Shown here one piece after another: positions 1 through 37,602 of a stretch of DNA of 46,346 nt. The stretch's first letter is position 1; every line of letters begins with the position of its first letter. The notes beneath the pieces are model-generated. The model saw nothing but the letters and a program-made list of their open reading frames with translations, had not been told where the DNA came from and did no database searches. Position numbers and translations under genes: made by a program. Source of the DNA: Pseudomonadota bacterium (GTDB lineage: Bacteria > Pseudomonadota > Alphaproteobacteria > Acetobacterales > Acetobacteraceae); contig JAJZCG010000010.1 of NCBI GenBank assembly GCA_021846225.1, positions 1-46,346 on the forward strand. The letters are read 5' to 3'.

Positions 1-210
1 AATCGCCCTCTTAAAACTAGCGCGGTCGTTTGAGGCTCGCCCAACCGGGCGAGCCGAAAGCGTGAATCGCCCTCTTAAAACTAGCGCGGTCGTTTGAGCC
101 TCGCCCATCTGGGCGAGCCGAAAGCGTGAATCGCCCTCTTAAAACAAGAGCGCGGTCGTTTGAGGCTCGCTCATCTGGGCGAGCCGAAAGCGTGAATCGC
201 CCTCTTAAAA
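1..210. repeat. Tandem array of structured ~64-bp repeats (type A)
   Basis: Units begin with AATCGCCCTCTTAAAA at 1, 65, 129 and 195, so the period is 64, 64 and 66 bp; the fourth unit is cut short after its first 16 bases. The array probably continues left of the window. Each full unit carries TCGTTTGAGG, a GC-rich hairpin and CCGAAAGCGTGAATC. In unit 1 the hairpin arms are GGCTCGCCC (34-42) and GGGCGAGCC (47-55), with loop AACC. Unit 3 changes one stem base but keeps a G-U pair, and units 2 and 3 change the loop to ATCT. There are no unique spacers, so this is not a CRISPR array. It lies directly 3' of the minus-strand dihydroorotase gene. Confidence 0.9.
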
Positions 211-224
211 AACAGCTTCTTGTC

Positions 225-266
225 TGAGCGAAAGCTCGTCAGGTCACACTATGAGCGAAAGCTCAT
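225..266. repeat. Duplicated GAAA-loop hairpin over the dihydroorotase stop codon
   Basis: TGAGCGAAAGCTC occurs at 225-237 and again at 252-264, 27 bp apart. Each copy folds as GAGC/GCTC around GAAA; the second extends to ATGAGC/GCTCAT. The second copy encodes the last five codons of the minus-strand gene, whose TAG lies at 249-251. On the minus strand a T6 run follows further on (205-211), so the region may help end the transcript, but the fit to a classical terminator is poor. Confidence 0.55.
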
Positions 267-1574
267 CGCGCGGCCCACCGGCTCGCCTTCCACCGCGCCC
301 TCGCGCATCACAATCTGCCCGCGCACCACGCTGGCCACCGGCCAGCCGGTGCAGGACACGCCCTCAAACGGCGTCCAGCCGCACTGGCTGGCAATCCATG
401 ATTTCTCGATCCGGCGCGTCGCCCGCAAATCCACAATGGAGAAATCCGCGTCATACCCGGCGGCGATCCGCCCCTTGTTCACCGCGCCATAAACCCGCGC
501 CGGCCCGGCGCACATCAAATCCACCAGCCGCAACAGCGAGAGCCGGCCCTGGGCCACCTGCTCCAGCATCATCGGCAACAGCGTCTGCACCCCGGTCATG
601 CCGGAGGCGCAGTCAGGCCATGGTTTTTCCTTCGCCGCCTTGGAATGCGGCGCATGGTCGGAGGCCAGCGTATCCACCGTGCCATCAGCCACCGCGGCCC
701 AGGCGGCTAGGCGGTGGCGCTCATCGCGCACCGGCGGGTTCATCACGCCATACGGCCCCAGCCGGTCATAAATATCCGGGGCCGATTGCACGAGATGGTT
801 CAGCAACACCTCGGTGGTCACCAGCGCGCGATAATCCTTGAGATACGCAAATTCCTCCTCGGTTGACACATGCAGAATATGCACCGGCCGCCCGGTCTTG
901 CCCGCCAGCGTCGCCACCCGGCGCGTGCCGAGAAACGCGCATTCCGGGTCGCGCCATAGCGCGTGACTGGAATACGGATCGCCACAGCTGAAACGCGATT
1001 TACGCTCGACCAGCCGGTATTCATCCTCAGAGTGGAACGAAACCCGCCGCCGCCCGCTGCGCAGCACCCGCTCGATGCTGGCATCATCCTCCACCAGCAA
1101 ATTCCCCGTCGAAGACCCCGCGAACACTTTGATGCCGCACACCCCGGGCATGCTCTCCATCATGCCGAGCTGCTCGATATTCTCCTTGTTGGCGCCAACA
1201 TAAATGCCAACGTCGCAATACGCCCGCCCGGCGATGTAATCATGCTTGCGGGTCAAATTCTCAGCATCGGTGGCGGCCGGGTTGGTGTTGGGCATGTCGA
1301 ACACACAGGTCACCCCGCCCAGCACCGCGCCCAGCGTGCCTGAGCGCATGTCCTCCACCCCCGCGATGCCGCCCATCCCGCCATCGCGGAAATGCACATG
1401 CGGGTCGATCACGCCCGGCAGCACATGCAGGTTCGCCACATCAAAAACCTGCGCGGCGGGGCCAAGGTTTTTGCCAATGGCGGCAATATGCCCCGCGCGC
1501 ACGCCGATATCGGCCTGGACCTCGCCCCAGGGCAGAACCACGGTGCCGTTTTGCAACAAAAGATCAAAACTCAT
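249..1574 (-). CDS. pyrC: Dihydroorotase-type cyclic amidohydrolase
   Basis: A 441-aa class I dihydroorotase-like enzyme, which would close carbamoyl-aspartate to dihydroorotate in cytosolic pyrimidine synthesis. The metal-binding DPHVHFRD motif lies near residue 57. GIKVFAGSSTG holds the lysine expected to be carboxylated, and HSED, HILHVST and SDHAPH supply the remaining ligands and the catalytic Asp. The overall pattern, including the WIASRCGWTP-like C-terminal block (here WIASQCGWTP), matches the alphaproteobacterial dihydroorotase group PRK09060 as I remember it. The start is ATG at 1574 behind GAGGCTGGT. It follows the glycosyltransferase gene by 31 bp on the same strand and may be cotranscribed. 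No pyrB is adjacent, so a hydantoinase or allantoinase role is a weaker alternative. Confidence 0.9.
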   Translation of the reverse strand: MSFDLLLQNGTVVLPWGEVQADIGVRAGHIAAIGKNLGPAAQVFDVANLHVLPGVIDPHVHFRDGGMGGIAGVEDMRSGTLGAVLGGVTCVFDMPNTNPAATDAENLTRKHDYIAGRAYCDVGIYVGANKENIEQLGMMESMPGVCGIKVFAGSSTGNLLVEDDASIERVLRSGRRRVSFHSEDEYRLVERKSRFSCGDPYSSHALWRDPECAFLGTRRVATLAGKTGRPVHILHVSTEEEFAYLKDYRALVTTEVLLNHLVQSAPDIYDRLGPYGVMNPPVRDERHRLAAWAAVADGTVDTLASDHAPHSKAAKEKPWPDCASGMTGVQTLLPMMLEQVAQGRLSLLRLVDLMCAGPARVYGAVNKGRIAAGYDADFSIVDLRATRRIEKSWIASQCGWTPFEGVSCTGWPVASVVRGQIVMREGAVEGEPVGRAMSFRS

Positions 1575-1605
1575 ACCAGCCTCACATACATAAAATCACC
1601 GCGCG

Positions 1606-2622
1606 TCACGGCAGCAGTTTCTGCAAATTTTCCAGCCAGATGCCGAGCACCGCCTGCGGCGAGAACTCTCCCGCAAAGCGCTGGCGCGCCACCAGCGCCA
1701 GCTTCACCCGCAGCCGCGTGTCACTGAAAATCCGCAGCGCGGCGGCGGCCAGGGCCTCGGCGTCGTCCACCGGCACCACCAGCCCGTCCTCACCATCGCG
1801 CACCACCCCGTGCTCGCCTTCAACATCGGTGGCGAGCACCGGCGTCTGCGCGGAAAACGCCTCCAGCACCGCCGTGCCCAGCGGGCGCTGCCGCGCCGGG
1901 CATACAAACACATCCGCCGCCTTCAGCAACGCCCCGGTATCGCGCCGCGCGCCGATCAGGCGCACCCGCTTCTCCAGGCCCAGTTGCACGATCAACCGGC
2001 CCAGCGCCGCGCGCTCCGGCCCTTCGCCCGCAATCAGGCAATACACCTCCGGCAGCCGCGCCGCCGCGCGGATCAACGTATCAAACCCGCGGGCGCGCTC
2101 CAGCGGCCCCAGCCCCAGCAGCAGCGGAGCATCCTCGGGCACCCCCAGCGTCTCGCGGCGCGCCGGGTCATCACGGATGTAATCTTCCACGCAATCGGGC
2201 AGATACAGCACCTTGGCGGGCGAAAATCCGCTTTGCACGATGTGGCTGACAATGCCGGGCGTACTCCCCGCCAGATACGCGCAATGGCCAAACTCGTTAC
2301 GCCCGTAATAGCCATCCAGCCGGCCGGCATTCACCCACGGCCCGCGCGGCAGAAACGAGGCGGCGCGGCCGCTCCAGGCAAGGGCGATCTGCGCCTTGCG
2401 CTCCTGCAAAACCTCCCGGATTCCCTTCAACGTCGCAAAATCCAGCATCCCGCCGAATTCGAGCGTCATGGGCGGCAACGCGCCCGTGCGCAGCCGCAGT
2501 TCCAGCCCAGGGTCCGCGCTGATGATGGGAAACACCTGATGCCCGTTATGCGCGAACAGCAGCGCCATGCGCTCATAGAATCCGTTAGCGCCGCCCCCGG
2601 CGATGATCTGGGCTATACGCAT
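1606..2622 (-). CDS. GT-B glycosyltransferase, family 4-like (group 1)
   Basis: A 338-aa retaining glycosyltransferase. It has a short N-terminal Rossmann half starting MRIAQIIAGGGANG and a C-terminal nucleotide-sugar half. The latter includes LLGLGPLERARGFDTLI, LIAGEGPERAAL and the E-x7-E type region around GTAVLEAFSAQTPVLATD. The start is ATG at 2622 with GGAGG six bases upstream. It overlaps the end of the upstream family 9 glycosyltransferase gene by 10 bp, so the two are translationally coupled. Together they most likely act on lipopolysaccharide core or another envelope glycan at the inner face of the membrane; the sugar specificity cannot be read from the sequence. Confidence 0.85.
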   Translation of the reverse strand: MRIAQIIAGGGANGFYERMALLFAHNGHQVFPIISADPGLELRLRTGALPPMTLEFGGMLDFATLKGIREVLQERKAQIALAWSGRAASFLPRGPWVNAGRLDGYYGRNEFGHCAYLAGSTPGIVSHIVQSGFSPAKVLYLPDCVEDYIRDDPARRETLGVPEDAPLLLGLGPLERARGFDTLIRAAARLPEVYCLIAGEGPERAALGRLIVQLGLEKRVRLIGARRDTGALLKAADVFVCPARQRPLGTAVLEAFSAQTPVLATDVEGEHGVVRDGEDGLVVPVDDAEALAAAALRIFSDTRLRVKLALVARQRFAGEFSPQAVLGIWLENLQKLLP

Positions 2623-3506
2623 AGCAACCTCCGCGCGGCGGCGGCCACGGTCTCCACACTCAACCCCTCCATCGGCGCGCCTCCCGCCGGGCCTGGGGCC
2701 ACGGCAACTTGCGTGCGCACACCGGCCGGAGCGTATTCATCAGCCCGTGAGCGTCCAAACAGCCCCAGGGTGGGCGCCCCGGCGGCGGCGGCCAGATGCA
2801 TCAGTCCCGAGTCGTTGCCAATGAAAATGGCGCAGCGGCGCAAACAGGCGGCCACTTCCGGCAGGCTCAAATTCCCCACCAGGTCGATCGCCCCCGGCAA
2901 CGCCGCCAGCACCGGCTCAGCCAGCGCGCGTTCATGCGCCCCCGGCCCCGCGAACACCGCCACCCGCGCCTCTGGAAACAGCCCGGCCAACACATGGTAC
3001 AAGGCCACGAATCGTTCCGGCGGCCATATTTTCCCAGCCCAATTCGCCGTCGGCCCAAGCCCTATCACCACACCCTCGCCCAGCAGCGCGGCGGCCTTGG
3101 CATCATCCGCCGGGGCGGTCCAGGCCACGGGCAAAGGCGCCGGCGAGAACCCCATGGCCGCGCCCAGCTGCTCATAACGCCGGCCTGGCCTGCGCCCGCC
3201 CTTCAAAATCTTGCGCCGCCCCGCCGCCAGAAAAAACGAAATGCCCGAGGAGCGCACATCCACCACCTGGCTCCAGAACCTCCCCACCAACCGGGTCCAC
3301 AGCCGCAGCCAGTGCAGGTCGAAGCCTTCCTTCTCAAACACGATCAACTGTTCCAGCCCCGGCATCCGGGCAAACACCCCCGCCGCCACCACGCCACACG
3401 CAACCGTGAAGCGTGCGCGCGGATTTTCAAGCCGCAAGCGTTCCAAAATGCCACAGGAAATCACGGCGTCGCCAATCCGCGACGAGGTTATAAAAAGGAT
3501 TCGCAT
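2613..3506 (-). CDS. Glycosyltransferase family 9 (heptosyltransferase-like)
   Basis: A 297-aa ADP-heptose:LPS heptosyltransferase-type protein. The N-terminal MRILFITSSRIGDAVIS is the typical start of the family, and the C-terminal half has FIGNDSGLMHLAAAAGAPTLGLFG, the donor-binding GNDSG/H block. It is slightly shorter than E. coli WaaC/WaaF (about 320-350 aa). It is the first gene of a minus-strand run with the GT4 gene and the dihydroorotase gene. An LPS inner-core role is inferred from family and pairing; other GT9 members act on different glycans. It is divergent from the YgfZ-like gene across a short 58-bp gap. Confidence 0.85.
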   Translation of the reverse strand: MRILFITSSRIGDAVISCGILERLRLENPRARFTVACGVVAAGVFARMPGLEQLIVFEKEGFDLHWLRLWTRLVGRFWSQVVDVRSSGISFFLAAGRRKILKGGRRPGRRYEQLGAAMGFSPAPLPVAWTAPADDAKAAALLGEGVVIGLGPTANWAGKIWPPERFVALYHVLAGLFPEARVAVFAGPGAHERALAEPVLAALPGAIDLVGNLSLPEVAACLRRCAIFIGNDSGLMHLAAAAGAPTLGLFGRSRADEYAPAGVRTQVAVAPGPAGGAPMEGLSVETVAAAARRLLCV

Positions 3507-3564
3507 CTGCTCTTGCGTCTAGCACGGCTTGCGGCTTTCGCGCCAAGCACCCATTTGCACGGCC

Positions 3565-4413
3565 ATGAGCTTTCTCGCACACCTGCCGCAACGCGGCGTC
3601 ATTTCCCTCACCGGCGCCACACGAGTCGCCTTTCTCAACGGGCTGATCTCCAACGACGTTGCCCTCGCCACCCCCGGCCGCGCGGTCTGGGCAGCCCTGC
3701 TCACACCGCAGGGCCGCTATCTGTGCGATTTTTTCATCTACGCCGAGGCTGACCGGCTGTTGCTGGAAGCCCCGCGCGAGGCCCTGGCGGGTCTGCTCGC
3801 GCGGCTGAAGCGCTTCCGGCTGCGCGCCGCGGTGGAGCTGACTGATATTTCCAGCACCCTCCACGTCTATGCCGGCTGGGGCGGCCCCGCGCCGCAGGGC
3901 GCCAACATTGAGCCGACTGGCGCCAACATTGAGCCGGATGGCGCCATCACCGCGCCGGACCCGCGCCTGCCCGCGGCCGGGTGGCGCACGCTAAGCGCAA
4001 CCCCGCTCACCCCCAACGCCACCGCGGCTGATTACGCAGCCCACCGCATCCCCCTTGGCCTGCCCGACGGCCCGCCAGACCTGGAGGCGGAAAAAACCCT
4101 GCTGCTGGAAGCCGGATTCGATGAGCTGCACGGCGTCGCCTGGAATAAAGGCTGCTACATCGGCCAGGAGCTGACCGCACGCACCAAATACCGCGGCCTG
4201 GTCAGGCGCCGCCTCGTCCCCGTGCACTGCAGCGAGCCGCCGCCGCCGGGAACCCCTGTGCTGGCCGATGGCGTGGAGGTTGGCGTCATCGGCTCGCACG
4301 CCGGGCATATGGCCCTGGCCATGCTGCGGGTGGACGCCCTGGGTAAACCCCTGCACGCCGGCGCCGCCCTGTTGCAGCCCATGCCGCCATCCTGGTTGCG
4401 CCTTGAGCCATGA
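3565..4413 (+). CDS. ygfZ: YgfZ/GcvT-type folate-binding protein
   Basis: A 282-aa member of the YgfZ (IbaG/GcvT-like) family, which in E. coli uses folate to help build or repair certain Fe-S enzymes, including MiaB. The diagnostic KGCYIGQE motif sits near residue 196 in the context WNKGCYIGQELTAR. ATG at 3565 (MSFLAHLPQ) is preferred to an in-frame ATG at 3529, because family members begin directly with this segment and the longer form would use up nearly all of the divergent promoter gap. An unusual low-complexity insert, GANIEPT/GANIEPD/GAITAPD, lies at residues 112-132. The gene ends before a hairpin that serves the opposite strand. Confidence 0.88.
   Translation: MSFLAHLPQRGVISLTGATRVAFLNGLISNDVALATPGRAVWAALLTPQGRYLCDFFIYAEADRLLLEAPREALAGLLARLKRFRLRAAVELTDISSTLHVYAGWGGPAPQGANIEPTGANIEPDGAITAPDPRLPAAGWRTLSATPLTPNATAADYAAHRIPLGLPDGPPDLEAEKTLLLEAGFDELHGVAWNKGCYIGQELTARTKYRGLVRRRLVPVHCSEPPPPGTPVLADGVEVGVIGSHAGHMALAMLRVDALGKPLHAGAALLQPMPPSWLRLEP
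3898..3960 (+). repeat. 21-bp in-frame tandem repeat inside the ygfZ-like gene
   Basis: Three 21-bp units (3898-3918, 3919-3939, 3940-3960) encode GANIEPT, GANIEPD and the diverged GAITAPD. The first two differ only in the last codon. The period is a multiple of three, so unit gain or loss keeps the frame. The insert lies between the two conserved halves of the protein. Confidence 0.9.
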
Positions 4414-4423
4414 AGCGGGCAAC

Positions 4424-4454
4424 AAAAAACCGCCGGAGGCAAGTCTCCGGCGGT
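4424..4454 (-). terminator. Rho-independent terminator of the cytochrome c gene
   Basis: A perfect 10-bp stem (ACCGCCGGAG at 4429-4438, CTCCGGCGGT at 4445-4454) has a 6-nt loop. Read on the minus strand, the hairpin is followed by T6 (4424-4429 on the plus strand). It lies 46 bp past the cytochrome stop and just after the convergent ygfZ stop, so it may also protect the plus-strand gene. Confidence 0.85.
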
Positions 4455-4500
4455 CACGTCAAGGCGTTGTTACTTTAAGTTACGCTAAGTTACTATAAAC

Positions 4501-4914
4501 TTACTGCGCCTGGGAAACGAACGGCACAGTGGACTTCATATCCGTCGCGTAGCTCAGCGCGGTGGTCCCGGCCGGATAGCCGTTCTTGCTGAGGATGTAG
4601 GACATGACATCGGTATACTGATCATGCGACAGGCTGCCCGGCGCGCTCACCGGCATCTGCTGCGAGATCTCGGTGAACACCGAGCCGATCGTGTACTTGT
4701 TACCCGGCGCCGCAAAAGTCGGCCCGATAAGCGCGGGGCCTGCCACGCCTTTAAGGTCCGCGCCGTGGCACATCGCGCAATTCTGCGCGAACACTGCGGC
4801 ACCAGCGGTCGCCTGCGTCTGGGTGTACAGTGCGGGGGGCGTCGCCGCCATTGCCGCAACAGTTGCCAGCAGCAAACCGGCCGCCGCCAATCCAGTCACT
4901 TTTAATGCGTTCAT
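4501..4914 (-). CDS. Small exported c-type cytochrome
   Basis: A 137-aa monoheme class I cytochrome c, expected in the periplasm. A Sec signal peptide runs to about residue 23 (hydrophobic GLAAAGLLLATVAAMA). The heme-attachment motif CAMCH is at 46-50 and the likely sixth ligand is Met87 in QQMPVS. The mature domain is about 110 aa, normal for the class. It is a single-gene unit with its own terminator; the gap upstream to the divergent rarA is about 190 bp. It probably shuttles electrons to an oxidase or dehydrogenase, but no partner gene is nearby to say which. Confidence 0.9.
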   Translation of the reverse strand: MNALKVTGLAAAGLLLATVAAMAATPPALYTQTQATAGAAVFAQNCAMCHGADLKGVAGPALIGPTFAAPGNKYTIGSVFTEISQQMPVSAPGSLSHDQYTDVMSYILSKNGYPAGTTALSYATDMKSTVPFVSQAQ

Positions 4915-5104
4915 CGGACTACTTTCATAAGCTAGCTGTTCGAAAATTTTCAGACTCGCACAGCCAGCTCAAAAGACGGCCAAGGCAAAAAACGGCCAGC
5001 GCCCAGGTTGAGCTTGTGCAGTGCGCCGTCATTCTGCACCCGCGGCACCAAAAGCGCAACGAGGCCCGCTTCAATCCTGGCCGCGCGCGGGTTACAATGG
5101 GCAA

Positions 5105-6418
5105 ATGCCCGAGGATGATCTGTTCTCCCCCAATGTCACCGAATCGTCACCAATCCAGGGCCAACCGCTGGCCGAGCGCCTGCGCCCGCGCAGCCTGGGT
5201 GATATTGCGGGCCAGGAACACCTGCTTGGACCGCAGGGCAGCCTTACCGGAATGCTGGCACGCGGCTCCCTCGCCTCGCTTATTCTGTGGGGTCCGCCCG
5301 GTGTTGGCAAAACCACCATCGCACGCCTGCTCGCCGCCGGCGCCAATTTGCATTTCACGCAAATCTCCGCTGTGTTTTCCGGCGTGGCCGATCTCAAGCG
5401 CGTGTTCGACGATGCGCTGAAACTAAAAAAAGCAGGCCGCGCCACGCTTCTTTTCGTCGATGAAATCCACCGCTTCAACCGCGCGCAGCAGGACGCCTTC
5501 CTACCTGTGGTTGAGTCCGGAACCATCGTGCTCATTGGCGCCACTACGGAGAATCCATCCTTCGCCCTCAACGGCGCGCTGCTCTCTCGCTGCCAGGTGC
5601 TGGTGCTGCGGCGGCTGGACGATGAAGCCATGGAGCTTCTCCTCCAGCGCGCCGAGGCCGAGACCGGCCAGCACCTTCCCCTCACCCTGCAAACCCGCGC
5701 AATGCTGCGCGCCATGGCCGATGGCGACGGCCGCGCCCTGCTCAACATGGCCGAGCAACTCTTCGCCTTGCCCGAAGGCGAACCGCTAAACGAGGAAGGG
5801 CTGAGCCGCTTGCTCTCGCGCCGCGCCGCCCTTTATGACCGTGACCGCGAGGAACATTACAACCTCATCAGCGCGCTGCATAAATCCATGCGCGGCTCGG
5901 ATGCCGACGCCGCCCTCTACTGGCTGGCCCGCATGTTCACCGGCGGCGAGGACCCGCGCTTCATCGCCCGCCGGCTCACCCGCTTCGCCTCGGAGGACAT
6001 TGGCCTGGCCGACCCGCAAGCCCTGCCCCAGGCCCTGGCCGCATGGGACGCTTACGAACGCCTGGGCTCGCCCGAAGGTGAGCTCTGCATCGCCCAGGCC
6101 GTGCTCTACCTCGCCACCGCCCCCAAATCCAACGCCGCCTACAAAGCGCTGGGCGCCGCCACCCGCGCCGCGAAGGAAACCGGCAGCCTCATGCCGCCGC
6201 AAAACATCCTCAACGCCCCCACCAAACTGATGAAAAACCTCGGCTACGGCGCGGGCTACACCTACGACCACGACACAGACGAAGGCTTCTCCGGCGATAA
6301 CTACTTCCCCGAAGGCATGGGCCGGCCCGATTTCTACCGCCCGGTGCAGCGCGGTTTTGAGCGCGACATCGCCAAGCGGCTCGCTTATTGGGCGAAATTG
6401 CGCGAAGAGGGCGCATGA
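5105..6418 (+). CDS. rarA: RarA/MgsA replication-associated AAA+ ATPase
   Basis: A 437-aa AAA+ protein of the RarA (MgsA, WRNIP1) family, which acts at stalled replication forks and binds SSB and DNA ends. Visible parts are the N-terminal PLAERLRPRSLGDIAGQEHL, Walker A GPPGVGKT at 63-70, Walker B LLFVDEIHRFN, sensor 1 GATTENPSF, and the C-terminal tetramerisation block with FIARRLTRFASEDIGLADP. ATG at 5105 (MPEDDLF) is preferred to an upstream in-frame ATG at 5021, whose extra 28 residues are basic and not family-like. The stop overlaps the rluC-like start by ATGA, so the two are coupled. Confidence 0.93.
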   Translation: MPEDDLFSPNVTESSPIQGQPLAERLRPRSLGDIAGQEHLLGPQGSLTGMLARGSLASLILWGPPGVGKTTIARLLAAGANLHFTQISAVFSGVADLKRVFDDALKLKKAGRATLLFVDEIHRFNRAQQDAFLPVVESGTIVLIGATTENPSFALNGALLSRCQVLVLRRLDDEAMELLLQRAEAETGQHLPLTLQTRAMLRAMADGDGRALLNMAEQLFALPEGEPLNEEGLSRLLSRRAALYDRDREEHYNLISALHKSMRGSDADAALYWLARMFTGGEDPRFIARRLTRFASEDIGLADPQALPQALAAWDAYERLGSPEGELCIAQAVLYLATAPKSNAAYKALGAATRAAKETGSLMPPQNILNAPTKLMKNLGYGAGYTYDHDTDEGFSGDNYFPEGMGRPDFYRPVQRGFERDIAKRLAYWAKLREEGA

Positions 6419-7386
6419 CACTCACATTTGAAGTCCCCGAGGCTGAAACCAACACCCGCCTCGACCGTTTTCTGCGCCGCAATGTCGAAGGGCTGACCCA
6501 GGCGCATATCCAAAAATTCCTGCGCGCGGGCAAAATCCGGGTGAACGGCGCCAAGGCCGAGGCCAACACACGCCTCGCCCTGGGCGACACCGTAACCGCC
6601 CCCGAGATCACCCCGCCGAAGGAAATGCCAAAGGTCCGGCAGGTGATGACCATGGACCCGCACATGATCCGCGACCTCGAAGCCATGATCCTCTACCGTG
6701 ATGACTCGGTGATCGTGCTCAACAAACCCGCCGGCCTCGCCAGCCAGGGCGGCAGCGGCATCACCGTGCATCTCGACGGCATGCTCGACGCCCTGCGCTT
6801 CGATGGCACCGAACGCCCCAAACTCGTCCACCGGCTGGACCGCGACACCTCCGGCGTTCTCCTCCTGGCGCGCGGGGTCAAACCTGCCAGCAAACTCGCC
6901 ACCGCCTTTCGCGGCCGCGATGTCGAAAAAACCTACTGGGCGCTGGTCTGGGGCGTGCCCGATGTGCTGCAAGGCCGCATCGACCTCCCCCTGGTGCGCG
7001 TGGAAGTGAGCGGCATGTCGCGCTCCGAGCCCGCCAACCGCAAAGACCCCGAAGCGCTGAAAGCCGTCACCGCCTACCGGGTGGTGGAATACGCGGGCAA
7101 AAAATTCGCCTGGATGGAGCTGCAACCCCAAACCGGGCGCATGCACCAGCTGCGCGCCCACATGCTCGCGCTCGGCACCCCCATCCTGGGTGACGCCGCC
7201 TACGGCCAGGCCTTCGCCGACGGTTTCGCCCCGCAACTCCACCTGCACGCCCGCCGCCTGCAATTCCCCCACCCTGACGGCGGCACCCTAACCGTCGAAG
7301 CCCCCTTGCCCAAACACATGCGCGACAGTTTTTCACACCTGGGTTTTACCATCCCGGAGACAATGAAACCGAAACGCAACGTTTAG
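6415..7386 (+). CDS. rluC: RluC/RluD-family 23S rRNA pseudouridine synthase
   Basis: A 323-aa enzyme that would isomerise specific uridines in 23S rRNA. An S4 RNA-binding domain occupies about residues 12-65 (RLDRFLRRNVEGLTQAHIQ). The catalytic domain has the HRLDRDTSG motif with the nucleophilic Asp142, followed by the YWALVWG and GRMHQLRAHM blocks. ATG at 6415 overlaps the rarA stop (ATGA), so the longer frame beginning at 6388 is rejected. RluC specificity (positions 955, 2504 and 2580 in E. coli) is the likeliest, but RluD cannot be excluded from sequence alone. Confidence 0.88.
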   Translation: MTLTFEVPEAETNTRLDRFLRRNVEGLTQAHIQKFLRAGKIRVNGAKAEANTRLALGDTVTAPEITPPKEMPKVRQVMTMDPHMIRDLEAMILYRDDSVIVLNKPAGLASQGGSGITVHLDGMLDALRFDGTERPKLVHRLDRDTSGVLLLARGVKPASKLATAFRGRDVEKTYWALVWGVPDVLQGRIDLPLVRVEVSGMSRSEPANRKDPEALKAVTAYRVVEYAGKKFAWMELQPQTGRMHQLRAHMLALGTPILGDAAYGQAFADGFAPQLHLHARRLQFPHPDGGTLTVEAPLPKHMRDSFSHLGFTIPETMKPKRNV

Positions 7387-7604
7387 AGCCAAAAAGCCGC
7401 AACGCAAGTGCGATGGCGCTGGATAACCCGCCACGCACGGCCCCGCGCATCACGTACCTAAACCTTCGAAATCATTCCTTTTCCGCACCAAACCCGCACA
7501 AATTGGGGTGCAAGTAAAAAATTAAACTTCATAAACAGCGCCTTGCCGCACGAACTTCACAAATGCTCCACGTGAAGCACCGCACCAGCACAAAACACAG
7601 GCAC
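7387..7604. other. Gene-free stretch downstream of rluC
   Basis: No ORF with coding character is visible. A small hairpin (CGCAAGTGCG inside GCC...GGC) lies about 15-35 bp after the rluC stop, but no T-run follows. The central part (about 7480-7600) is AC-rich and less GC-rich than the genes around it. Nothing else is recognised. Confidence 0.5.
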
Positions 7605-7638
7605 AAAAAAACGCCGCGCGGTTTCCCACACGGCGTTT
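7605..7638 (-). terminator. Minus-strand terminator beyond the rpsO 3' region
   Basis: Stem AAACGCCG (7609-7616) pairs with CGGCGTTT (7631-7638) around a 14-nt loop. On the minus strand it is followed by T7 (A-run 7605-7611 on the plus strand). It lies about 220 bp past the rpsO stop and beyond the two type B repeats, so it could be the final stop for the truB-rpsO transcript. Confidence 0.65.
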
Positions 7639-7641
7639 CAA

Positions 7642-7779
7642 GATTCTGATCGTTTGAGGCTGATGCGCACCAGCGTGGCAACCGAAAGCGTGAATCAGCC
7701 TCTTATCAAAGAGTCTAATCGTTTGAGGTTGACCCGCACCAGCGTGGCAACCGAAAACGTGAATCAGCCTCTTGTCAAA
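7642..7779. repeat. Two structured 69-bp repeats (type B)
   Basis: Two units with a 69-bp period start at 7642 and 7711. They share CGTTTGAGG, CACCAGCGTGGCAACCGAAA and CGTGAATCAGCCTCTT. In unit 1 GAGGCTGAT (7655-7663) pairs perfectly with ATCAGCCTC (7694-7702), enclosing a small CCA-GCG-TGG hairpin. The outer flanks (TCGTTTGAGG and CCGAAAGCGTGAATC) are the same as in the type A array at 1-210, while the core between them differs. The array lies 3' of rpsO on the minus strand, in the same relative orientation as the first array. Confidence 0.85.
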
Positions 7780-7856: not shown

Positions 7857-8126
7857 TCAGCGGCGCAGGCTCAACCGGCCGATCAGGTCCTGGTAGCGCT
7901 TCACATTCTTGCGCTTCAGGTAATCCAGCAGCGAGCGGCGCTGGCCAACCAGCACGAGCAGGCCACGGCGCGAATGGAAGTCCTTCGCGTGGGTCTTGAG
8001 ATGCTCGGTAAGGTTGGAGATGCGCTCGGAGAGCAGGGCAACCTGCACTTCGGGGCTGCCGGTGTCATGTTCGGCGGTCGCGTATTCGGCAATCAGCGCC
8101 GTGCGGCGCTCTGGCGTAATCGACAT
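7857..8126 (-). CDS. rpsO: 30S ribosomal protein S15
   Basis: An 89-aa protein of standard length with the S15 signature region [17 protein letters not shown] and [16 protein letters not shown]. It is a primary 16S rRNA binder in the 30S platform. ATG at 8126 (MSITPERR) has GAAGGAT about eight bases upstream, so the longer frame reaching 8177 is not used. It follows truB by 11 bp, the common truB-rpsO pairing. The usual downstream pnp gene is absent; two structured repeats and two terminator-like hairpins follow instead. Confidence 0.97.
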
Positions 8127-8137
8127 CGTGATATCCT

Positions 8138-9073
8138 TCACGAAAATTGTTGAATCAACCGCTCCGGCTTCAGCCACCCATCGGAGAGTCGGGCCAGTGC
8201 CAGAACGCGCCCCGCCGCCAGTACGCGAACCAGCCCTTCATCGGGATTGGCGGCATCTGGAATCCGCCCCATCAGGTCGACCAGGTTAATCGGCTGGCCT
8301 TGTGAGAGGGCATGAGCCTCAACTGCCGTCAGGGCCAGTGCCGGGATGTCGTCCAGCGCGGTCTCGAGCGGCCGAACAAGCTCGGCAAGTGCGCCCGGCG
8401 TATGCGACGGATCGAGGATCGTGTCCATACCAACCGCCATGTTTTCCAGGAATGGCCCCACGCGCAGCCGCCGCAGCACCACGATATGCCCCACCGTGCC
8501 GCAGGCCCGCGCCAGGTCGCGCGCCAGCGAGCGCATATAAACCCCCTTGCCGGACTCCACTTCAAACTCGGCCGTGTCGGCATCGGGGCGGCCGATCAGC
8601 TCAAAACGGTCCACCTGCGCGGGGCGCGGCGGCAATTCCGGCGGCGCCCCGGCCCGCGCCAGGTCATAGGCGCGCTCGCCATCAACCTTGATGGCCGAAA
8701 ACGCCGGCGGAATCTGCATGATACTGCCCCGGAACGCCGGCAGCGCCGCCTGTATCTGCTCATCCGTGGGGCGCGCATCGGAGGTCGCCGTCACCGCGCC
8801 CTCGGCATCATCAGTGTCGCGCGCCTCGCCAAAGCGGATGGTGAAATGGTAAAGCTTGGTGCCATCCATTACATACGGCACGGTTTTGGTCGCGTTGCCC
8901 AAAGCGATCGGCAGAATACCGGTGGCCAGCGGGTCCAGCGTGCCGCCGTGCCCTGCCTTCTGCGCATCCAGCGCGCGCTTCACCTTATTCACCGCCTGCG
9001 TGCTGGTAATCCCCTGGGGTTTATCCAGAATCAGCCAGCCGTCGATCTTGCGGCCACGCTTTTGTTTAGCCAT
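8138..9073 (-). CDS. truB: tRNA pseudouridine(55) synthase TruB
   Basis: A 311-aa enzyme that makes pseudouridine 55 in the T-arm of most tRNAs. The catalytic motif [16 protein letters not shown] carries the nucleophilic Asp (about residue 44), preceded by [33 protein letters not shown] and [11 protein letters not shown] are further TruB blocks, and a PUA-like C-terminus follows. ATG at 9073 (MAKQKRGRK) with an upstream GGA is preferred to an in-frame TTG at 9088. It is transcribed with rpsO and is divergent from the cpaE-like gene. Confidence 0.95.
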
Positions 9074-13123: not shown

Positions 13124-13882
13124 CTATACCGTAAACTGCTCGGTGATAATGCGTTCGGAGAGGGCGCGGTCAGGGTCGAAGAGGACGGTCGCGCCGACGC
13201 TGCGATCCTCGCTGACCGCGACGGAGACGACGTTGCGGACCTCGGTAAAATCCGCCACCGCGGCGACAGGACGTTTATCCGGCTCCAGAATCTCAAACAG
13301 CACATCCACCGTGGAGGGCAGCAGCGCGCCGCGCCAACGCCTGGGGCGGAAGGCGGAGATGGGGGTGAGCGGCAGCAGATTGGCGCTGAGCGGGATGATG
13401 GGCCCGTGAGCGGAAAGATTATAGGCGGTCGAACCGGCGGGGGTGGCAATCAGCACGCCATCGCAGATCAGTTCTTCCAGGCGCACGGTATGGTCCACAT
13501 GGATGCGGATTTTGGCGGCCTGGCGCAGCTGGCGGAGCAATGAGACCTCATTGAGGGCCATGGCCTCTTCCACCACGCCCGAGGCGGTGATGGCGTGCAT
13601 GCGCAACGGATGGAGAATGCTGGGATGCGCGCGGGCAATGCGCTCCTCCAGGCCGGGCTCCAGGAATTCGTTCATCATGAAGCCGACAGAGCCGCAGTTC
13701 ATGCCGTAAACGGGTTGATCGGTGCCCAGAACCTTATGCAGACATTCGAGCATCAGCCCGTCGCCGCCCAGGGCGACGATGACATCTGCCTCACGCTGAT
13801 CGCAATTGCCATAAATGGCGGTCAGGCGCGCCTGGGCGGCCTCGGCGATCTCGGTGCGCGCCGCGATGAAGGCGATTTTCAA
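13124..13882 (-). CDS. nadK: NAD kinase
   Basis: A 252-aa NAD(+) kinase that makes NADP+ from NAD+ and ATP. It shows the GGDG motif ([14 protein letters not shown]), the [11 protein letters not shown] block and the [23 protein letters not shown] signature. The frame is open much further upstream, but the family N-terminus (KIAFIAAR) begins at a TTG codon at 13882, and no ATG or GTG lies between it and the catalytic core. That TTG overlaps the nitrilase stop as TTGA, with GGAAG five bases before it, so the start is a coupled TTG. It is the last gene of a long minus-strand run. Confidence 0.92.
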
Positions 13883-36712: not shown

Positions 36713-37485
36713 GCAAAAATCTGGGCGTATGGGAAAAGGCTAAGCGCGAGGGCCGCAAGATGAGCATGATCACGGCCTATGACTACCCCTTTGCGCGCCT
36801 CGCGGAGGCGGCCGGGATGGATGCGGTGCTGGTGGGCGATTCATTGGGCATGATGGTGGCCGGCGATGCCGATACGCTGCGGGTTTCACTCGAACAGATG
36901 CTCTACCATACGCGCATTGTGGCGAAGGGCGTGGCGCGCGCGCTGGTGATGGCGGATCTGCCCTTTGGCAGTTTCGAGGAATCTCCGGCGCAGGCCTTCG
37001 CGAGTTCCGCGGCGCTGCTGAAGGCGGGGGCGGATATCGTGAAGCTGGAGGGCGGGATGCCGATGGTGGAGACGGTGAGATATCTCTCGCAGCGGGCAAT
37101 CCCGGTGTGCGCGCATATCGGGCTGACGCCGCAGCATGTGCGCCAGCTGGGCGGCTTCAAGCGCCAGGGCAAAACGCAGGAAGCCGCCGCGCGGATTTTG
37201 GAGGAGGCGCTGGCGCTGGAGGAGGCGGGCGCGCGCATGGTACTGATGGAGGCAATTCCCAGCGAGCTGGCAGCCGCGATCACCCGGCGGCTGAGCGTGC
37301 CGACGATCGGCATTGGCGCGGGGCCGGACACGGACGGCCAGGTGCTGGTGCTGCATGATGTGTTGGGGCTGAACATGGACCGCGCGCCGGGATTTGCCCG
37401 CCAGTATGTGAACGGCGCGGCGCTGATGCAGGCTGCCCTGAGCGATTACGCGGCTGACGTGCGCGACGGGAAATTCCCGGCTTAA
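36709..37485 (+). CDS. panB: 3-methyl-2-oxobutanoate hydroxymethyltransferase
   Basis: A 258-aa TIM-barrel enzyme, first step of pantothenate synthesis (ketopantoate from alpha-ketoisovalerate). MITAYDYPFARLAEAAGMDAVLVGDSLGMMV and VKLEGG hold the Mg and substrate ligands, with IPVCAHIGLTPQHV and IGIGAGPDTDGQVLVLHDVLG further on. ATG at 36709 overlaps the pncC stop (ATGA); the longer frame from 36475 is a shadow of pncC. It supplies the CoA pathway that ends at coaD in this window. Confidence 0.96.
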   Translation: MSKNLGVWEKAKREGRKMSMITAYDYPFARLAEAAGMDAVLVGDSLGMMVAGDADTLRVSLEQMLYHTRIVAKGVARALVMADLPFGSFEESPAQAFASSAALLKAGADIVKLEGGMPMVETVRYLSQRAIPVCAHIGLTPQHVRQLGGFKRQGKTQEAAARILEEALALEEAGARMVLMEAIPSELAAAITRRLSVPTIGIGAGPDTDGQVLVLHDVLGLNMDRAPGFARQYVNGAALMQAALSDYAADVRDGKFPA

Positions 37486-37602
37486 AGTGCCCGGCAGAAC
37501 GCGCCGGTCCGATCAACTTTCAGCCGCCGGTGCCCGCTGATGGTGGACTGATCAGCCAGATTGCAGTCTAACCACTTCAATCCGGACAGATTGCGGGGGG
37601 CT

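What the first reader, a model, noticed from the sequence alone, without database searches (positions are those of the whole stretch)
1..7779. A modular repeat family: constant flanks, exchangeable hairpin cores
The arrays at 1-210 and 7642-7779 share TCGTTTGAGG on one side and CCGAAAGCGTGAATC plus CCTCTTA on the other, but have different cores. Type A holds a 9-bp GC hairpin (GGCTCGCCC/GGGCGAGCC). Type B holds CACCAGCGTGGCAA and closes with an outer GAGGCTGAT/ATCAGCCTC stem. Conserved shells with swapped, structure-keeping cores suggest selection on folded RNA or DNA, or a mobile REP-like element. Both arrays lie 3' of minus-strand genes in the same relative orientation.
Basis: partly seen in the sequence, partly recalled or inferred. 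Interest (0 to 1): 0.7.

Follow-up and report, generated by a model that had tools for sequence, protein, structure and literature searches.

The report
Stop-codon-targeting double-hairpin mobile repeats
The two repeat arrays belong to a family of small hairpin-forming mobile DNA pieces of Alphaproteobacteria that insert at a TA, often inside a gene's stop codon in a way that leaves a working stop codon, probably using the enzyme of a common jumping gene (IS630).

Summary
The window's genome (an Acidocella, inferred) holds at least 146 copies. Both cores are hairpins, and pairs covary across 37 sequences from Acidocella, sphingomonads, Caulobacteraceae and Hyphomicrobiaceae.

The full element is a double hairpin. 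Module 1 (M1, sometimes in tandem) is followed by a linker of about 10 nt and an inverted, diverged module 2 (M2). The shared frame is Y-TAGAG-NNN-GAT-[free stem]-TGA-ATC-NNN-CTCTA.

It is not a RAYT-driven REP: the RAYT model hits 2 of 18 carrier genomes and 3 of 18 non-carriers. Four empty-site comparisons at three sites show insertion at YTAR with TA duplication, one right copy mutated. In 24 of 71 arrays the TAG at the left end is the upstream gene's stop codon, about 3.5 times the share among insertable YTAR sites. In 13 of 31 IS630 loci examined the best ends are TAGAG[C/T], all with Y/R flanks.

Architecture, TA termini and GANTC sites match the published CIR repeats, whose mobility a 2007 review left open. 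Best reading: CIR-like MITEs moved by an IS630-family transposase. Roles in RNA or methylation control are untested.

The parts
1..15 (+). 3' end of a further M1 type A unit, cut by the contig start
   Evidence: contig C60 (L164) ends with a like array and the same right flank
16..79 (+). M1 unit, type A core (GGCTCGCCC/GGGCGAGCC)
   Evidence: R1 64.4 bits
80..143 (+). M1 unit, type A core
   Evidence: R1 57.7 bits
146..209 (+). M1 unit, type A core
   Evidence: R1 73.1 bits
7640..7707 (+). M1 unit, type B core; degenerate left end (AAGATTC instead of TAGAG)
   Evidence: R1 67.1 bits; boundary
7709..7776 (+). M1 unit, type B core
   Evidence: R1 70.1 bits
7782..7841 (+). M2, inverted partner hairpin of array 2: TTTAAAGCGCG...CGCGCTTTAAA, with GCGTCAACC/AAAC/ATC resembling the reverse complement of the M1 left half
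   Evidence: sequence; MFE fold; only a weak R1 match, 13.5 bits, E 0.33
249..1574 (-). amidohydrolase-family gene (PF01979; dihydroorotase-like by inference), neighbour of array 1
6415..7386 (+). RNA pseudouridine synthase gene, upstream neighbour of array 2 (254 bp away)
7857..8141 (-). rpsO (ribosomal protein S15), convergent neighbour of array 2
37474..37492 (.). empty target site: the TAA stop of the + gene ending at 37485 (TTAA); L066 (G011) carries a type A element exactly here with TA duplicated
   Evidence: gene end

Best explanation
These are CIR-like miniature transposable elements of Alphaproteobacteria (105 and 129 bp in one type A and one type B copy measured). Each is two hairpins facing each other over a linker of about 10 nt, with ends (Y)TA-GAG...CTC-TA(R).

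Shown: insertion at YTAR with duplication of TA. Shown: because the element starts with G, insertion into the TA of a TAA stop codon rebuilds a stop (TAG), so the gene keeps its length; where stops of convergent genes overlap (TTAA), both survive. Shown: many IS630-family elements of the class have the same ends and target.

Inferred: an IS630-family (Tc1/mariner-type) transposase moves the elements in trans. Inferred: M1 then multiplies locally in tandem (1-5 copies) by slippage or unequal recombination, and the hairpin cores drift freely as long as pairing is kept.

Not shown: whether the hairpins act as RNA (3' UTR processing, termination or stability), as transposase sites, or only as mutational products; and whether the GANTC site in the bulge matters.
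For: At least 146 copies. Covariation in both stems. M2 is an inverted relative of M1; linker 10 or 11 nt in 11 of 11 strict facing pairs, overlapping loci counted twice. Empty sites: L170/L084 (TA duplicated, both convergent stops kept), L066/window, and at one site L048/L086 and L152/L086, the last with the right TA mutated to TC. Y before TAG in 45 of 52 arrays that start TAG. Left end equals the upstream stop codon in 24 of 71 arrays, against 9.7% of insertable YTAR sites being stops, p about 3e-8; still 7e-5 at 15%. Best TA-bounded ends start TAGAG[C/T] in 13 of 31 IS630 loci (1 in 64 expected); these 13 have spans of 1,048-1,065 bp and Y/R flanks in 26 of 26 ends, neither asked for; 4 of 24 distinct ends carry GATTC near the place where the inner arm has it, against 0.18 expected. 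IS630 domain in 16 of 21 carriers against 7 of 22 hand-picked non-carriers, p=0.006; all carriers searched 23 of 36, p=0.03. Patchy spread: 18 of 386 class genomes with R1, 13 of 386 with the strict frame, control 0.
Against: Element and IS ends share firmly only (TA)GAG[C/T] and the target, short for a MITE and its parent. In the first set 8 of 15 carriers had no IS630 domain, several positives are fragments, and 18 of 31 IS630 loci gave other best ends (for example L320, L323). Two genomes with TAGAG-ended IS630 are non-carriers (G084, G112). The outer-stem positions differ between left and right end and covary within each hairpin, which a plain double-strand TIR model does not predict. No movement was observed. 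Of the ten empty-site rows printed (one site twice), five were not clean: c12, c52 (right end truncated), c53 (another element there), L074/L288 (66/81% identity), and window array 2 against L282 (degenerate ends).
Confidence: 0.68

Rival explanations
1. A REP/REPIN family spread as single-stranded DNA by a RAYT (Y1 HUH) transposase. The inverted M1-M2 pair would be a REPIN.
For: Inverted pair of bulged hairpins, extragenic, many copies. RAYT genes exist in 5 of 36 genomes tested, among them the carriers G009 and G011.
Against: No Y1_Tnp in 11 further carrier genomes. No RAYT in 16 of 18 carriers including the window's own genome, and RAYT in 3 of 18 non-carriers. The four RAYT loci inspected (L036-L039) hold no copy. 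No GTAG tag: the base before TAG is C or T in 45 of 52. TA duplication.
Confidence: 0.06
2. Elements kept mainly as functional 3' UTR RNA: a hairpin starting at the stop codon that terminates transcription or steers mRNA decay, as described for ERIC.
For: Both neighbours on the M1 strand 15, both on the other strand 5 (p=0.04). Left end at a stop 24, right end at a stop 8 (p=0.007), though M2 is missing or cut in some arrays. The excess at stop codons over intergenic YTAR sites is not explained by loss of insertions in genes alone. G.U pairs lie on this strand (columns 14/49 and 21/42). Strong folding, z about -5 on both strands. The review reports orientation-dependent mRNA effects of ERIC.
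Against: Some sites are empty in relatives 90-97% identical in the flanks, though others are shared (for example c9/L122, c27/L087, c41/L112). No U-tract seen after the hairpins. No expression data.
Confidence: 0.17
3. Covariation comes from hairpin-driven template switching that rewrites one arm from the other, not from selection on the fold.
For: Inner stems are free in sequence and nearly perfect (7.38 of 8 positions paired against 4.90 with arms exchanged). Units within a genome are often homogeneous.
Against: The mismatch at stem position 6 (15 of 37 paired, against 33 and 34 of 37 beside it) and the TGA bulge persist although repair would erase them.
Confidence: 0.3

Closest known systems
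CIR (Caulobacter CcrM/'CerM'-associated intergenic repeats, CIR1-CIR4; Chen & Shapiro 2003, known here only through the review PMC2229807, sections 4 and 7)
   Same: Alphaproteobacteria, intergenic, two arms joined by a linker, TA at the termini, GANTC sites conserved
   Different: Here M1 is often in tandem; GANTC sits at a side bulge (a terminal loop in the CIR description); sequences not compared because the primary paper is not held. The review lists TSD '?' and mobility mechanism unknown; here TA duplication is seen.
RUP of pneumococcus / IS630-Spn1 (PMC2229807 passages)
   Same: 107-bp MITE, TA target, proposed to be moved by an IS630 transposase, end similarity to the IS
   Different: Different phylum; no double hairpin described in the passages seen
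ERIC and Correia/NEMIS (PMC2229807, Table 1 and passages)
   Same: Small palindromic MITEs with TA termini and TSD, folded RNA
   Different: One overall stem-loop per the review; enterobacteria and Neisseria
GTAG and CGTC REPs (PMC3733652, section 4 part 1, section 6 and passages)
   Same: Hairpins, often inverted dimers; CGTC type common in alphas and not tied to transposases
   Different: 20-40 bp, with tags GTAG or CGTC that are absent here; CGTC stems 8-9 bp, almost always with AT at positions 1-2
Bru-RS repeats and IS711 (PMC2266754 passages)
   Same: YTAR target with TA duplication for IS711, and palindromic repeats that it prefers
   Different: IS711 is not an IS630 element (family recalled); Bru-RS sequences not compared

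Membership tests
CIR repeats | two arms joined by a linker | tested here: met
   M1-linker-inverted M2
CIR repeats | GANTC sites conserved in the repeat | tested here: met
   136 of 144 own M1 units in the bulge region; anywhere in the 68-nt match in 26 of 26 class-survey loci examined, 3 of 29 loci left out; the motif was part of model and patterns, so partly by construction
CIR repeats | GANTC at or in a terminal loop | tested here: inconclusive
   Acidocella units: at a side bulge; Caulobacteraceae and Brevundimonas M2 also has GAATC/GATTC beside the terminal loop
CIR repeats | TA at the termini | tested here: met
   52 of 71 arrays start TAG; empty sites
CIR repeats | sequence similarity to CIR1-CIR4 | not testable with these tools
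   primary paper not held
IS630-type MITE | TA target-site duplication | tested here: met
   three exact cases and one with a mutated right copy, at three sites; five other rows not clean
IS630-type MITE | ends like those of an IS630 element | tested here: inconclusive
   TAGAG[C/T] in 13 of 31 IS630 loci, GATTC in 4 of 24 distinct ends of these; match otherwise short
IS630-type MITE | autonomous partner in the genome | tested here: inconclusive
   IS630 domain in 23 of 36 carriers searched; the copy in G000 has TAGAGTCT ends but its reading frame is in two overlapping ORFs
REP/RAYT | RAYT gene in the genome | tested here: not met
   absent in 16 of 18 carriers
REP/RAYT | GTAG (or CGTC) tag beside the hairpin | tested here: not met
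   G before TAG in only 5 of 52; no CGTC beside the hairpin in alignment A1
Rfam RNA families | match to a curated family | tested here: not met
   no match on the arrays or on copies in 4 loci

The most novel reading that the evidence does not exclude
The GANTC site fixed in the bulge and inner arm of nearly every module is a cell-cycle switch. CcrM methylation of GATTC inside IS630/CIR transposase sites would allow mobilisation, or hairpin extrusion, only in the hemimethylated window after the replication fork passes, as Dam does for IS10 (recalled). The stop-codon-rebuilding end would make these insertions harmless 3' UTR modules that the host can use.
Probability: 0.1. Interest if true: 0.75.

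Novelty: new variant of a known kind. Interest (0 to 1): 0.5.

Why it matters
CIR-like repeats have been known since 2003, but the review read here leaves their target duplication and mobility open. The empty sites and the ends shared with IS630 elements give a concrete, testable transposase and help explain why the repeats sit at gene ends: a YTAR target plus a leading G turns a TAR stop codon into TAG without changing the protein. The modular exchange of hairpin cores around a constant bulge offers a natural experiment for finding what the transposase, CcrM or RNases recognise.

Tried and rejected
REP/RAYT: rejected after (domain absence; no copies at RAYT loci) and the missing GTAG tag. CGTC REPs: rejected on stem length and missing tag (text read). 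Known RNA family: no Rfam match. 4-bp target duplication: left and right flanks do not agree beyond TA by eye. Plasmid copies: two BLAST searches at E up to 1e-3 found none. Literature: searches found nothing; one search listed 18 papers, of which two were read in part (PMC3733652, PMC8266576); one search listed 6, one read in passages; one search listed two, not opened; one search listed nine, one read in passages; CIR was found through the review that one search listed. These searches cannot show that the family is undescribed in Acidocella. A window match at 13709-13765 (E 0.76) was set aside as chance.

Limits. The gene caller is home-made (76% coding) and probably undercalls genes, so the expected 9.7% is probably too low; the excess holds at 15%. 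In some searches, 144 of 172 model matches were used; the 28 dropped all score below 27.3 bits and most are the antisense of a counted unit. Six places or clusters were not fetched (C23:7907, C38, C57, C71, C87, C122). In one search at most 13 candidates per genome were scored. The 22 non-carriers were picked by hand from the list. The 13 IS630 loci were those of 31 whose best ends began TAGAG.
Full report
Observation. Both arrays exist as described. In the window's genome (G000, 2.69 Mb, 123 contigs; the window is contig C85) the 15-mer CCGAAAGCGTGAATC has 145 matches with up to one mismatch and 0 in the reversed control. A covariance model finds 146 copies, a lower bound. Seven of 41 genomes examined carry the pattern, all in the window's genus: G000 106, G009 75, G002 33, G011 33, G012 2, G016 1, G018 1.

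Anatomy. An alignment of 37 M1 units supports two stems: an outer stem TAGAGNNNGAT/ATCNNNCTCTA and an inner stem. 91.6% of cells are paired against 78.0% in shuffles, 126 double-change cells against 43, and every slid version is far worse. Both first-reader cores are hairpins. G.U pairs at columns 14/49 and 21/42 mark the GTTTGAG strand as the better-pairing one. M1 is followed by a second hairpin, M2, which looks like an inverted, diverged relative: in type B its GCGTCAACC..AAAC..ATC..CTCTA matches the reverse complement of the M1 left half. In a class survey the inner stem sequence is free, and the frame TAGAG/GAT/TGA/ATC/CTCTA recurs. A strict search for that frame hits 13 of 386 genomes (11 genera) with no control match; R1 hits 18 of 386 (17 genera). 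In 37 distinct strict modules the first 8 inner positions pair in 7.38 of 8 on average, against 4.90 with arms exchanged. Stem position 6 is paired in only 15 of 37, against 33 and 34 of 37 for its neighbours. Facing modules are 10 or 11 nt apart in 11 of 11 strict pairs, overlapping loci counted twice. Tandem copies are of M1; 31 of 71 arrays have one unit, 40 have two to five. One type A element (L054) measures 105 bp and one type B element (L139) 129 bp.

Place. I fetched 60 stretches around copies, called genes with a home-made codon model and examined 71 arrays (144 units). 38 lie between convergent genes, 15 have both neighbours on their own strand, 5 have both on the other strand, 1 is divergent, and 12 lack one neighbour. 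Where an upstream gene was called it is on the M1 strand in 61 of 67; the convergent cases say nothing on orientation. 52 of 71 arrays begin TAG, preceded by C or T in 45 of 52. In 24 of 71 this TAG is the stop codon of the upstream gene. Of 362 YTAR sites outside coding sequence, 35 (9.7%) are stop codons, so the excess is large (p about 3e-8, and 7e-5 if the true share were 15%). The M2 end is the stop of the downstream convergent gene in 8 arrays (my reading of the 31 listed).

Insertion. Four comparisons at three sites, with relatives lacking the element, show YTAR to YTA-[GAG...CTC]-TAR. L170 against L084: TTAA, where the stops of two convergent genes overlap and both are kept. L066 (G011 by record prefix) against the window at 37474-37492: the TAA stop of the gene ending at 37485. 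L048 (G011, type A) against L086 (G002). L152 (G000, type B) against the same L086 site, with the right TA now TC. So one site holds type A, type B or nothing in three species. At the array 1 site G009 has another, different element starting at the stop codon TAG of the same gene. Other rows were not clean: c12, c52 (right end truncated), c53 (another element in the relative), L074/L288 (low identity), and window array 2, absent from G011 but with degenerate ends. Some insertions are shared between species (c9/L122, c27/L087, c41/L112).

Transposase. Y1_Tnp is absent in 11 of 11 further carrier genomes. The RAYT-specific model is absent in 16 of 18 carriers, present in G009 and G011, and present in 3 of 18 non-carriers. 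The RAYT loci L036-L039 hold no copy. IS630 domains occur in 7 of 15 carriers in one set, and in 16 of 21 carriers against 7 of 22 hand-picked non-carriers in another (p=0.006); pooled 23 of 36, p=0.03. For 31 IS630 loci I looked for the best TA-bounded inverted ends without asking for TAGAG. In 13 the best pair starts TAGAG[C/T]; these come from 8 carriers and 2 non-carriers. All 13 span 1,048-1,065 bp and all 26 outer flanks obey Y...R. 4 of 24 distinct ends carry GATTC near where the element's inner arm has it, against 0.18 expected. The other 18 loci gave other or no convincing ends. This makes an IS630-family transposase the most likely mover, not a proven one.

Known relatives. A review (PMC2229807; sections 4 and 7 and passages read) describes CIR repeats: about 110 bp, in Caulobacter, Brucella and other alphas, two arms with a linker, TA at the termini, GANTC sites, TSD unknown, mobility unexplained. 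Our elements meet the architectural features. GANTC is present in the bulge region of 136 of 144 own units and somewhere in 26 of 26 class matches examined, partly by construction. The primary CIR paper is not held, so sequence identity with CIR1-CIR4 is untested. RUP (IS630-Spn1) is the mechanistic parallel in the same review. REPs of the GTAG and CGTC kinds (PMC3733652, section 4 part 1, section 6 and passages; PMC8266576, passages) differ in size and tag. IS711 (PMC2266754, passages) uses the same YTAR/TA target and prefers Bru-RS palindromes. RIMEs were seen only as a name (PMC2573895, passages).

Verdict. A real, widespread, modular family; the REP/RAYT reading is wrong, the mobile-element reading right. 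New here, as far as the searches reach: TA duplication, rebuilt stop codons, M2, tandem M1, same-site exchange of types, and the IS630 end match.

Noticed in passing
window 7493-7514 with flanks (also L143, L182, L191, L195 in the own genome; L059, L070, L123, L282 in relatives): A second conserved repeat, about 75 bp (TTTTTCG..CCAAACCCGCACAAATTGGGGTGCAAGCAAAAAATTAAGCTACACTAACA), of unknown kind, perhaps a regulatory site.
   Followed up: partly
L185:6780-6846, L150 downstream of the array, L281 beside the array 1 site: Further core types of the same double-hairpin frame (for example TAGAGGCGGATTCAGACAT...) coexist in Acidocella.
   Followed up: partly
L036-L039, L212-L221: RAYT genes (NF047646) in 5 Acidocella genomes, six matches in G020; their own REP family, if any, was not sought.
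   Followed up: no
window 200-232 and L164:2683-2715: Contig C60 ends with the same 33 bases as the right edge of array 1, so C60 and C85 are probably neighbours split by the array; the last repeat units differ by a few bases, perhaps strain variation in the assembly.
   Followed up: yes
G297 (L253, L265, L273, L279): 125 strict double-hairpin modules in one 5.5-Mb genome of unnamed genus, a good system for studying the family.
   Followed up: no
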